A stretch of DNA of 64,000 nt, from positions 4,774,001-4,838,000 of the forward strand of contig NC_064679.1 of assembly GCF_023278565.1 (NCBI RefSeq), read 5' to 3'. This document shows, piece after piece, positions 24,653 through 45,710 of this stretch. The first letter of the stretch is position 1. Each line of letters begins with the position of its first letter. Source of the stretch: Colletotrichum lupini (taxonomy: Eukaryota > Ascomycota > Sordariomycetes > Glomerellales > Glomerellaceae). The translations under genes were made by a program, and so were the position numbers. The notes below the pieces were generated by a model that worked only from the letters and a program-made list of their open reading frames with translations, did no database searches and was not told the DNA's origin.

Positions 24653-25063
24653 TTAGGGTTCTTGAAAGGTCCAGCAATGAGAAGCATCTTGGCATTCGAG
24701 ACCAAGATCCTTACATTCCAGGCAGATGACGAAGTCACCTCCATCGCACAAGCTACAGGTGTAGTATGCCTGCTCATCTGGGAAGGTACAAGTCATGCAA
24801 ATATCACACCACGCTGAATCGTAATCGAAGTTCGCCCCTTGTGTGCCAAGCTCGTTGTTCTCCGGCACATGAATTTTGAGCCTCAATGCATGTTGCAAGA
24901 CCGATTGGATGACTTCGGTGCTGCCACTTTTTCGTGCCCACCACATCGAGCTTCGCCCTAGTCCATCTCGAGACTCAAATGATCCCTCGTCGACTGAGAG
25001 CAGATATTTGACGGCTTCTTCATGTCCATTGCGACAAGCTGCAGATAATGGGGTTGATCCATA
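24653..25063 (-). pseudogene. NLR fragment: last ankyrin repeats and ZZ-like zinc finger
   Basis: Starts at the TA target duplication of the Tc1/mariner-like element and continues the ankyrin frame (YGSTPLSAACRNGHEEAVKY), with one more degenerate repeat (RSSMWWARKSGSTEVIQ). The C-terminus has CDICMTC, YYTCSLC, GDFVICLEC and a final DASHCW, the cysteine spacing of a ZZ-type zinc finger often found at the end of fungal NACHT-ankyrin proteins. The stop is TAA at 24655-24653. Cut off from its promoter, it is probably not translated. Confidence 0.85.
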
Positions 25064-25110
25064 AGTCGACCCACCCCCTTTTAGCCACCCCCCCCTTTTG
25101 GCCACCCCAT
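25064..25110 (+). repeat. Left terminal inverted repeat of Tc1/mariner-like element
   Basis: Matches the reverse complement of 26904-26950 over 47 bases with two A/G differences, at the bases following the TTTT runs. Confidence 0.9.
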
Positions 25111-26903
25111 CAAAACATGGTATCAAAACATCGCCACCAACTACACTCAATTAATTAACTATCTTCTACTACTATAATAATATAGTTATTATTCTCCCTA
25201 GGTAATTCGACCCCTACGAGTCGACTAGGACTAACTAAATAGTCGCTAAAGTCCTCCTAAGCTCTCTATATATCCTAGATATTTATAAACCTAGTATTTA
25301 GGTTTATTAATATACTCTTCTTTTTCTACGGCCTTAATTAGTTAACTTTAGCTTTTAAAACTCGAATATAGTACTAAGATATTACTAAATAGTAGGCTTA
25401 CTTACTAAATACCTTTTTTATTTTTTTAAATAGTAGTCGTTAAGTATTATAGTCTAAACTAAGCTTTATAAATAACTTTAACTAATCGTAGAGCTCGCTA
25501 GCCTTCTTAAGTATTAACTAGTTAATAATAGACGCTACTAATACTTAGTTAATAGCTTTTTTAGTATTACTAGTTACTTATTTAGTATTTACGGTCTTTT
25601 TAGTTAGTATAACTAAGTTAAGTAGGACTATTAGATTAGTAAGTAGTCTAGCTATATTAAGGGGATATAATCTAGTTACTTTTTACTTACTTCGTATATT
25701 TAATAATATTAGACTAGTTAAACGAGCTTTTTAATAGTAGCTTAAGAAGTACCGCTTTTTAATAATAATAAAATTGTTTACTATATCCTCCTTACTAAGC
25801 TCTTTTTTATACTTAGACTTAATAAGTCTAAAAATAGCTATATCTAATAGCTAAAGGACATAGGAAGTATATAATAATAAGAATAATAAGTAGACGTTAT
25901 TTTTATAGTATTTTTATATAAATTCTATTATTATATAACTCCTATAGCTATTTAGAACTAATAGTTAAGGCTTATTAAGTATATTAAGCCCCCTAAGGGG
26001 GGGGGTCTTAGTTTATAATAAGAATACTATTTTTAACTACTTAAGGGTAGTCTTATTAGTTATCTAGCTATTATTTATTACTATAAACTCCTAACTAGTA
26101 TAAGGGTTAAGTTTAAGTAAAAACTACTACTACTATACCGACTTTCTTTTATATATAACTAGTAGTTTAATAACTTAACTATTAATAAAAATATACTTAA
26201 TTATAAATACCTAAGTACGCAAACTAAGCTCTTTTTTTTATATTACTATAGTCTCTACTTTACCTAAAACTAAGCTATTAAATCCCTTACCCTTTAAGAT
26301 ACTAGTCTTATTTATATTATACTTATTAGCCTATTTAATATTACTAATTTTTAGTATATTAAGTAATCTAAACTATAACTTAATTATATTAATAATAGCC
26401 CTATTTAAACGCCTCGAATCGATAATACGACTTCTCTAGACCTTAATTAATAAGTTCCTTTTTAAAAAAGCGTCTATTTATCTCTTTTTAAGAGGATTTA
26501 TATCCCCCTAGGATCTTAGAACTCGCTTAGCGAATTTTATAAGCTATTTATAAGTTAATATAATACTTAGATTATACTAAATACGAACTTATTAAGCTAG
26601 CTAATTTTTTTATTATAGAAGAAGCCTCTAGAGGTCTATAAATACTATTACCCTCGTTTAGTAACCTCTCTTATAGTTACGAAGAGTTAACCTTAGAACT
26701 CTAAACTTAATTAAGGCCCGATTAACTAAGAGACCTCTTTTAATAACCTTAAGAGCTTAAATAACTTTATTTTTAATATACGAGACTATTATATATTAAT
26801 AAATAAGTATATAAAAAAGAATTATATTTGGACGATTTTTATAATTATTATAGTAGTTTAAAAATCGTGGGTAGGGTTTTAATGCGGTAGCTGGGATGGA
26901 GAA

Positions 26904-26950
26904 ATGGGGTGGCTAAAAGGGGGGGGTGGCCAAAAGGGGGTGGGTCGACT
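26904..26950 (-). repeat. Right terminal inverted repeat of Tc1/mariner-like element
   Basis: Inverted partner of 25064-25110. It abuts the TA at 26951-26952. Together with that TA it supplies the TAA that ends the upstream ankyrin frame on the minus strand. Confidence 0.9.
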
Positions 26951-43800: not shown

Positions 43801-45122
43801 TTATAAAATAATTTTTATTTATTTAATTTAATAATAATAAGGACTTCTTTTATATAGCTCCTTAATATTTATATTAATAACTTATTAGCGTTTTAGCTTA
43901 TAAATACTTATTTTAATTTTTAGTACGCTAAAGGGCGCTATAAGTATATATAATTATAAAAATATATAACGTTACTTTTATTATTTACGTCGTTAACTAA
44001 GTTAGAGCGTTTAGTAAAAATAAAATAAGCCCCTCTTTAATTTAAAAATCGTTTAGTATATATATTCTAAGTTACTAAGCTAAATATATATATAATTTCC
44101 TTAAGGGTCCTCGTATACGTTTTAAAAGCTATTAATTTATTAAAAATCTTATATATACGTTAGCCCTATATAGGGTTAAGTCTAAATTTAATTATAATTA
44201 AGAAATTAAGTATAGTAATCTCTTTATTATTTCTAGAATATTATACGTTTTAGTTTAGAAATAAGTAAATTACTACTCTTTATATTAGCGTTAAGAATTA
44301 ATTTTAATCCTTACTTTATTAAAAGCTTATTAATATTCCTCTTAAACTATATTCCTTATTATTAGTTCGGGGGGTATAAATTCCTATTTTAAATATTTAA
44401 TAATTTATTATATACTAAACTTAACGCCGTTCTTAATAGCTTTTTAAAATACGTATTTATATAATATAGCGTTAACTAATTTTACTAATTATTAAATAAG
44501 GACTTTAATATACGTATTAATAATATTACGTTTATAAACTATAAGTTACTTATATTTAATATTAAGCTCTTATTATTTTTAAATACTCTTAAGTATATAA
44601 ATCCTCTTTACGAGTACGGTATAAAAATAGATTTATTTATATAAAATAAGTAATATAACTAGCTTTATAAAGAAAAACCTAGCTTAGTTTTATAAGTTAT
44701 TTATATTTAAAAAAGTTAAAAAGTTTATACTAAGAGTTATATTTAAAAATTATTAATAGAGGATTTTTTAGTTTTTTTAATTATTTTTAAACGCTTTATA
44801 ACGGGCTTAATAAGCTCGTAGTTCTTTTTTATTATAAGTTATAACTAATTATTCGAATTTTAAGGGCGAAGTAAGTATTATAAAAGGGTTAAGGAATATA
44901 TTAAAATCTAAAGCGTTTAAGTCGACGTACTTCTAAACCCTAATACCCTTACTTATAATATAAAATACGTTAAACTATTTAATTTAACTATTATAACTAG
45001 TTAATTTAGCTTAGGCTAAAGTAAGTATAAATAAGTTAATTATTTTAAAAAGATTATAAGAATTATATTCATAAGTACGTTATTATAATATAAGGTCTTA
45101 ACTAAGAGCTAGGCTTATAATT

Positions 45123-45298
45123 ATTACGAGTTATAGTACGTAATAATAGGTATATAGAGTATAATAAAAATAGCTTAATTATTAAAATAAAAATAAATAA
45201 ATAAAAAAGGTCTATATATACGATATCTAAAATAGACACGTGATTTAGCACGTAACGGGCACTTTATAAAGTACGATTACTATCCCTGTTACGTGACA
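45123..45298 (-). repeat. LTR of element B (right copy)
   Basis: Pairs with 37695-37868. Its last 80 bases keep unmutated CACGTGATTTAGCACG-type sequence. Confidence 0.85.
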
Positions 45299-45710
45299 CC
45301 TTGCCCCTCAAGGACCAAACAAGCTTTTACCTCCTTGATTCTGATGACTTTGGAAGGGATTAGATGCCGCGAGTGACGGTTGCTAAATTTTCATCCAGCC
45401 CGAGTTCTGATGTCGTTACGTCACCACAGATTGCCTTGATGACACTAAGCAGCTCTACTGCCATCAAGCGGACCTGCGGGTCATTCAGAGCGGTGTGATG
45501 GTCGTTCGAGAGCTTCCCTTGCCGGAACCCGACATCGCAGGCCCATTTTTTGAGGCGAAGCTTTTCCGCATCGAGCTGGACAGCGAGTGAACGTGAATCA
45601 CGGTCGAAATCTTTATATATGTCGACTCTCTCGATGACATCTAGACAAGTGCTCAGAATGCCTGCGAGCCCAGCGATTCCGACGGCTAATCCAACTGGCT
45701 CCATGGTCAT
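45299..45710 (-). pseudogene. NLR fragment: HeLo domain, N-terminal part
   Basis: Begins MTMEPVGLAVGIAGLAGIL; the second Met (45704) matches the usual start of HeLo (prion-inhibition and propagation) domains. It continues with CLDVIERVDIYKDF and SLAVQLDAEKLRLKKW, hallmarks of the family, whose N-terminal helix inserts into membranes in HET-S-type proteins. The frame is open for 116 codons to a TAA at 45362-45360. The same frame then continues with recognisable HeLo sequence (KLVWSLRGKA) after a second TAA at 45329-45327. Both stops are explained by CAA to TAA. The fragment ends at the target duplication of Copia element B. Confidence 0.85.

What the first reader, a model, noticed from the sequence alone, without database searches (positions are those of the whole stretch)
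24653..45710. A HeLo-NACHT-ankyrin-ZZ cell-death receptor gene shattered by three transposons
Five minus-strand fragments have the domain order of one fungal NLR. Each insertion has a proper target duplication (TA, CTTCC, CCTTG). Deleting the insert plus one duplication copy keeps the frame at the ankyrin site and the CCTTG site, giving family-typical sequence on both sides; at the CTTCC site the frame stays open. Three independent insertions in one receptor gene suggest relaxed or negative selection on it, or an insertion-prone locus. A caller working from open frames would report two or three unrelated proteins.
Basis: partly seen in the sequence, partly recalled or inferred. Interest (0 to 1): 0.9.

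Follow-up and report, generated by a model that had tools for sequence, protein, structure and literature searches.

The report
Cell-death receptor gene broken by transposons
A fungal immune-type receptor gene that would trigger cell death lies here in five pieces, split by three decayed mobile elements, and the gene next door is split in the same way; this is an ordinary kind of gene loss, with a useful record of when the fungus could still mutate its repeats.

Summary
Confirmed. Five collinear minus-strand pieces (about 45710 to 24629) map in order on one 1302-residue protein of Colletotrichum tamarilloi: HeLo, NACHT, ankyrin repeats, cysteine-rich tail. Three inserts with target duplications split them: a 1.9 kb DDE_1/TA element and two LTR elements of about 7.4 and 7.6 kb, all strongly RIP-mutated. 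The genome (63.44 Mb, 12 contigs) fits C. lupini.

New points. (1) RIP-type change spills into the gene beside the inserts, so stops as well as insertions break it. (2) No intact second copy was found; the one other HeLo match has no NACHT match near it. (3) The adjacent gene is also split, so a TE-prone region explains the clustering better than selection against this receptor. (4) The ZZ finger is a sub-threshold cysteine-rich tail. (5) The genome also holds near-identical stop-free Copia copies, suggesting that RIP acted when these inserts decayed but not since that burst. Mechanism: loss of a HeLo-NACHT-ankyrin receptor by serial insertion plus RIP leakage. Known kind; modest interest.

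The parts
45304..45710 (-). 5' piece: start of the gene and most of the HeLo domain (orthologue residues 1-140)
   Evidence: PF14479 E=2.5e-14; 112/112 identical to P0001; tblastn block; matches three small s protein (HET-s family) chains in the PDB, best E=1.6e-6
37695..45298 (.). LTR element el3, 7.6 kb, RIP-mutated; 5-bp duplication CCTTG at 37690-37694 and 45299-45303
   Evidence: LTR pair 88% identical, 18 transitions and 2 transversions between LTRs; duplication; (CA+TG)/(AC+GT) 0.07; no Pfam domain in six frames
37602..37693 (-). island of the gene between the two LTR elements (orthologue residues 137-164, end of HeLo), RIP-mutated, two in-frame stops
   Evidence: tblastn E=5e-5, 71%; two stops; 5 CA+TG and 12 TA, 0 of 3690 overlapping windows of the gene pieces as extreme on either count
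30194..37596 (.). LTR element el2, 7.4 kb, RIP-mutated; 5-bp duplication CTTCC at 30189-30193 and 37597-37601
   Evidence: LTR pair, 24 of 24 substitutions transitions; 1426 first-look candidates for its LTR genome-wide, 40 scored; no Pfam domain in six frames
29912..29998 (-). short exon between HeLo and NACHT (orthologue residues 166-194)
   Evidence: tblastn 90%, E=7e-10
26953..29877 (-). NACHT NTPase and ankyrin repeats, within an open 982-codon frame
   Evidence: NPHP3_N E=1.6e-28, NACHT E=3.2e-10, Ank_2 E=2.5e-100; 950/971 identical to P0001
25064..26950 (-). DNA transposon with a DDE_1 transposase remnant (pogo/Fot1 kind, name recalled), 1.89 kb, RIP-mutated; TA at 25062-25063 and 26951-26952; terminal inverted repeats about 55 bp
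   Evidence: DDE_1 PF03184 E=2.4e-7 on the minus strand with stops read as X; inverted repeats; 286 first-look candidates genome-wide for its first 537 bases, 40 scored
24629..25061 (-). 3' piece: last ankyrin repeat and cysteine-rich tail (orthologue residues 1159-1301); the frame ends about ten residues early
   Evidence: 120/129 identical; tblastn block; Pfam C1_2 and ZZ_ADA2 only below cut-off
47584..47649 (-). context: last 22 residues of the neighbouring gene (orthologue P0137, 789 aa)
   Evidence: tblastn residues 768-789, 95%
47652..54166 (.). context: second copy of the el2 family, inserted in the neighbouring gene; CTTCC at 47647-47651, CTTCT at 54167-54171
   Evidence: LTRs and body matched by blastn; ends read
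54167..56023 (-). context: middle of the neighbouring gene (P0137 residues 150-768); residues 1-149 lie beyond the window at C6:4854135-4854581
   Evidence: tblastn 98.7%; L064 6135-6581

Best explanation
This is a single-locus fungal NLR gene (HeLo pore-forming effector, NACHT oligomerisation domain, ankyrin sensor repeats, cysteine-rich tail) in a Colletotrichum genome, most likely C. lupini, destroyed by three independent transposon insertions. Shown: five collinear pieces, three inserts with target duplications, RIP-type decay of all three inserts, RIP-type substitutions and stops in gene sequence within 100 bp of inserts, no intact copy found elsewhere, and a neighbouring gene split by elements too. 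Inferred: the insertions landed one after another in a TE-rich stretch; RIP then acted on the repeats and leaked into the short gene stretches beside and between them. Inferred from the family: the intact protein would sense a ligand with its ankyrin repeats, oligomerise through NACHT and drive its HeLo helix into a membrane, killing the cell in non-self recognition. A complete product is not expected from this locus.
For: Collinear orthologue mapping; domains; target duplications and repeats; (CA+TG)/(AC+GT) 0.07-0.14 in the inserts against 1.00-1.75 in the gene pieces outside the island; leakage: within 100 bp of inserts 125 codons with 10 residue differences, of which 9 fit only C-to-T/G-to-A type change, and 4 stops; further away 1180 codons with 32 differences, of which 6 do, and 2 stops; Fisher P=9e-5 (9 of 10 against 6 of 32), 4e-5 if multi-base and ambiguous cases are dropped; no second copy: after the three matches at this locus the best one is 35% identical over part of the ankyrin repeats (36 of 163 first-look candidates scored); neighbour also split.
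Against: The 982-codon NACHT-ankyrin frame has no stop and could still be translated as a HeLo-less protein. P0001 is a predicted model, not a verified protein. Direction of substitutions is taken against one relative and at protein level; it is not polarised base by base. Whether insertion 2 sits in coding sequence or an intron is uncertain. Whether other C. lupini strains carry the inserts is unknown.
Confidence: 0.94

Rival explanations
1. A shortened gene survives: the 982-codon NACHT-ankyrin frame is expressed from its own start as a HeLo-less receptor or decoy, so the locus is truncated rather than dead.
For: The frame is open and 950 of 971 aligned residues match the orthologue; a C. 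acutatum relative, P0003 (1106 aa), is annotated without HeLo.
Against: The frame lacks the tail and ends at the TA insert; it lies between RIP-decayed repeats; the lack of stops is weak evidence because the gene differs little from its relative overall. No expression data were available.
Confidence: 0.15
2. The broken allele is one side of an allorecognition polymorphism: a TE-made null allele kept beside intact alleles, as at het-v of Podospora, where a V1-type strain carries a TE cluster in place of five genes.
For: Published precedent (PMC9262711, passages seen); the protein has domains used in fungal incompatibility; its NACHT region is only 66-74% identical to the five next relatives by identity, while the neighbouring gene's orthologue P0137 is 97%, 88% and 83% identical to three proteins of other Colletotrichum species (not the same species pairs).
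Against: The adjacent gene, of an unrelated kind, is broken as well; no strain comparison was possible; C. lupini is reported as clonal lineages (PMC10189766, passages).
Confidence: 0.1
3. Selection against the receptor (for example a cost of self-harm) drove repeated independent losses.
For: Three inserts in one gene; 3 of the 6 Colletotrichum proteins most identical to it are shortened models (P0003, P0009, P0022).
Against: After the first insertion further ones are neutral; the neighbouring gene is broken at two places; 59 of 79 bins of 500 bp from 24.5 kb on have GC under 0.35 while 0 of 36 do between 6.5 and 24.5 kb: regional, not gene-specific. Short models may be annotation errors.
Confidence: 0.08

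Closest known systems
Hypothetical NACHT-domain protein CTAM01_12915 of Colletotrichum tamarilloi (P0001)
   Same: Same gene: HeLo piece 112/112, NACHT-ankyrin 98%, tail 93% identical, same order.
   Different: Uninterrupted, 1302 residues; here five pieces with three inserts and stops.
Fungal NLR proteins with HeLo effector, NACHT and ankyrin repeats (PMC9815663, passages seen)
   Same: HeLo, NACHT, ankyrin repeats in that order.
   Different: Broken; carries in addition a conserved cysteine-rich tail that matches no Pfam family above its cut-off.
het-v of Podospora anserina, V1 type (PMC9262711, passages seen)
   Same: Loss at an allorecognition locus by a cluster of Tc1/mariner-like, Copia and Gypsy elements.
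   Different: There a region of five genes is replaced; here one receptor gene is split and its pieces remain. No incompatibility role is shown here.
RIP in single-copy DNA between repeats (PMC12543289 introduction, passages seen)
   Same: An 89-bp single-copy stretch between two repeats is changed in the RIP sense.
   Different: Seen as a natural trace, not in a cross; which pathway acted is not known.

Membership tests
fungal HeLo-NACHT-ankyrin NLR | N-terminal HeLo domain | tested here: met
   PF14479 54.0 bits against a cut-off of 23.2 in the 5' piece
fungal HeLo-NACHT-ankyrin NLR | NACHT NTPase domain | tested here: met
   PF05729 40.5 bits (cut-off 26.7), PF24883 100.4 bits (cut-off 24.8)
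fungal HeLo-NACHT-ankyrin NLR | C-terminal ankyrin repeats | tested here: met
   PF12796 329.6 bits
fungal HeLo-NACHT-ankyrin NLR | one uninterrupted gene for all domains | tested here: not met
   Five pieces, three inserts; the locus is filed as a broken member
fungal HeLo-NACHT-ankyrin NLR | cell death on activation | not testable with these tools
   Family knowledge and PMC9815663 passages
ZZ zinc finger | Pfam ZZ match over cut-off | tested here: not met
   ZZ_ADA2 11.6 bits (cut-off 27.5), C1_2 13.2 (cut-off 26); no ZZ match over cut-off in the six relatives scanned
Tc1/mariner, pogo/Fot1 kind (insert 1) | TA target duplication, terminal inverted repeats, DDE transposase | tested here: met
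   TA both sides, 48 of 55 terminal bases complementary; DDE_1 30.9 bits against 22. The name Fot1 is recalled
LTR retrotransposon (el2, el3) | paired direct LTRs, element starting TG and ending CA, 5-bp target duplication | tested here: met
   the inner LTR ends are decayed
LTR retrotransposon (el2, el3) | reverse transcriptase or integrase domain | tested here: inconclusive
   No Pfam match in six frames with stops as X; sequence strongly decayed; one 82-base weak match of el3 to a decayed Copia RT stretch
repeat-induced point mutation | CpA/TpG depletion, TpA excess, transitions between copies | tested here: met
repeat-induced point mutation | RID and DIM-2 methyltransferase genes | tested here: inconclusive
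   DNA_methylase matches at three loci; two long frames examined, one with BAH; assignment to DIM-2 and RID not tested by tree

The most novel reading that the evidence does not exclude
The locus is a dated record of a sexual past in a lineage with no recorded sexual state. The gene is single-copy here and uninterrupted in the closely related C. tamarilloi, so the RIP-type marks in its own sequence should have come after the inserts arrived, that is after the two species parted unless the insertion is an old polymorphism. The same genome holds 29 stop-free Copia reverse-transcriptase copies, 27 with one identical score, that look untouched by RIP since they spread. RIP, and with it the premeiotic stage, would therefore have stopped between the decay of these inserts and the Copia burst, and the receptor was lost before the switch to clonality, not because of it.
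Probability: 0.4. Interest if true: 0.6.

Novelty: new member of a known kind. Interest (0 to 1): 0.36.

Why it matters
It removes the one HeLo-NACHT receptor found in this genome and shows how a lost receptor can lie unrecognised over 21 kb. More usefully, RIP marks in a single-copy gene beside an insert, in a gene that is uninterrupted in a relative, give a way to ask whether RIP in a supposedly asexual fungus is ancestral or came after speciation; PMC7882544 leaves ancestral RIP and cryptic sex both open for apparently asexual fungi (passages seen).

Tried and rejected
Target preference of el2 for CTTCC: two el2-family copies in the window sit next to CTTCC, but of 31 LTR rows examined in 30 genome loci only the window's own copy has it, so this is taken as chance. 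LTR dating: rejected, since LTR differences are almost all transitions. Classifying el2 and el3 by protein domains: no match. The neighbouring gene's main piece has no Pfam match; names of its relatives (secreted protein, glutaminase A, six-hairpin glycosidase) come. A stop-free 982-codon frame as proof of constraint: rejected as too weak.

Papers: PMC11645255 (abstract, first of three parts of the results, passages); PMC10189766, PMC10076810, PMC9815663, PMC9262711, PMC12222747, PMC12543289, PMC7882544 (passages only); others seen only in search listings. In the library searched one paper holds both Colletotrichum lupini and repeat-induced point, and the passages seen there report no RIP analysis of C. 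lupini.
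Full report
What was asked.

Where the window comes from. It is C6:4774001-4838000 of a 63,443,975-base genome in 12 contigs. The best relatives of the two genes searched are Colletotrichum acutatum-complex proteins. A C. lupini assembly (RB221) of 63.41 Mb in 11 chromosomes is listed in PMC10076810 (passage), and C. lupini CLUP02 is the TE-richest of the strains in PMC11645255, 20.59% TE. The species is therefore inferred, not given by a tool.

The gene. A protein search with the NACHT-ankyrin piece (456 proteins, best 120 listed) has as best hit a 1302-residue C. 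tamarilloi protein, P0001, a cluster of 17 members, with HeLo, NACHT and ankyrin domains. Pieces taken apart match it in order: HeLo 112/112, NACHT-ankyrin 950/971, tail 120/129, and tblastn places five collinear blocks that leave out only residues 165 and 1302. Among 13 Colletotrichum proteins compared, of 18 Colletotrichum rows listed, P0001 is best for each of the five pieces. The HeLo piece matches three small s protein chains in the PDB. The tail is cysteine-rich and conserved in several relatives but reaches no zinc-finger cut-off of Pfam in the window or in the six relatives scanned, so the name ZZ is not established.

The inserts. Insert 1 (25064-26950) has TA on both sides, inverted ends and a decayed DDE_1 transposase. 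Inserts 2 and 3 are LTR elements (30194-37596 and 37695-45298) with duplications CTTCC and CCTTG. Genome first looks gave 286, 1426 and 273 candidates for a 537-base stretch of insert 1 and for the LTRs of inserts 2 and 3; 40 of each were scored and all matched. Insert 3 lies inside HeLo, insert 2 in the HeLo-NACHT linker, insert 1 in the last ankyrin repeats. For insert 2 the orthologue's model has no counterpart of 30000-30188, and three relatives (P0007, P0009, P0022) have about 12-16 more residues there by my reading, so that site may be intronic or coding.

RIP. The inserts have (CA+TG)/(AC+GT) of 0.07-0.14 and TA/AT of 1.5-1.8; the gene pieces outside the island have 1.00-1.75 and 0.35-0.90. 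Substitutions between the LTRs of insert 2 are 24 of 24 transitions; of insert 3, 18 of 20. The gene itself carries the mark near inserts: 9 of 10 residue differences within 100 bp fit only C-to-T/G-to-A change, against 6 of 32 further away (P=9e-5), with 4 stops in 125 codons against 2 in 1180 (P=0.001). The 89-bp gene island between inserts 2 and 3 has fewer CA+TG and more TA than any of 3690 windows of the same size in the other gene pieces (the windows overlap, so they are not independent). The comparison is with one relative at protein level.

Copies and neighbours. A genome search with P0001 gave 62 matches from the 36 scored of 163 first-look candidates; the first three are this locus, and the rest are 43% identical or less over partial stretches. 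HeLo PF14479 matches two places (four candidates, all scored); the other is at C3:3614983, and none of the 30 NACHT matches lies near it. A divergent HeLo or HeLo-like domain could be missed. The next gene on the same strand, an orthologue of P0137 (789 aa, 98.7% identical in its main piece), is likewise split: residues 768-789 at 47584-47649, 150-768 at 54167-56023, and 1-149 some 24 kb further, at C6:4854135-4854581. The element at 47652-54166 is a second copy of the el2 family, and a third begins at 56024. From 24.5 kb to the window end 59 of 79 bins of 500 bp have GC under 0.35; from 6.5 to 24.5 kb 0 of 36 do. Three inserts in the receptor thus need no gene-specific cause.

Timing. The genome's Copia reverse transcriptase matches (53) include 29 stop-free ones with 164.3 bits or more, 27 of them with exactly 164.9; 20 of the 53 carry stops and 4 others have none. 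Of six stretches read, the three stop-free ones are 99.9-100% identical over 753 bases, two decayed ones are about 91.5% identical to them, and the third decayed one did not align. Against a clean contrast: the stop-free copies have (CA+TG)/(AC+GT) of 0.88-0.90 and TA/AT of 1.12, between the gene and the inserts, and a burst can also be too young to have met RIP at all. So a recent Copia burst shows no RIP since it spread, whereas the inserts in the receptor are decayed. No sexual state is recorded for C. lupini (PMC10189766 passage), and the words RIP and repeat-induced do not occur in the main text of PMC11645255. Cytosine methyltransferase matches lie at three loci, one with BAH; calling two of them DIM-2-like and RID-like would be recalled knowledge and is untested. 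The reading that RIP acted here after the split from C. tamarilloi depends on P0001's uninterrupted model and on the insertion not being an older polymorphism.

Function. That HeLo domains of fungal NLRs cause cell death by membrane insertion is family knowledge (PMC9815663 passages), not shown here. Vegetative compatibility groups are reported for C. lupini lineages I and II (PMC10189766 passage), so if this strain belongs to them the receptor is not needed for all incompatibility.

Verdict. The RIP record is the part worth following.

Noticed in passing
window 47584-56023 and C6:4854135-4854581: The neighbouring gene (orthologue P0137, annotated as a secreted protein) is also in three pieces, split by an el2-family copy and by an AT-rich block of about 24 kb.
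   Followed up: yes
window 30189 and 47647: Two el2-family copies in the window share the target duplication CTTCC (the second has CTTCT on its right side); 30 other LTR rows in genome loci do not show it, so it looks like chance.
   Followed up: yes
genome, RVT_2 matches listed: 29 stop-free, nearly equal-scoring Copia reverse transcriptase copies beside 20 with stops: a recent burst with no sign of RIP since.
   Followed up: partly
window 16245-18859: Frames with AMP-binding, AMP-binding_C_3, PP-binding and NAD_binding_4 in series: looks like an NRPS-like adenylation-reductase gene.
   Followed up: no
window 6984-8824: Multicopper oxidase pieces (Cu-oxidase_3, Cu-oxidase_2).
   Followed up: no
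window 46593-47471: Two plus-strand frames in one register separated by a single stop, between the two broken genes; no Pfam match over cut-off.
   Followed up: no
P0003, P0009, P0022: Three of the six Colletotrichum relatives most identical to the receptor are shortened (one lacks HeLo, two lack the C-terminal part), which may be further losses or model errors.
   Followed up: no
L061 (C3:3614983-3615528): The only other HeLo match in the genome, followed in another frame by what looks like a kinase-type region (my reading of the translation, no family search).
   Followed up: no
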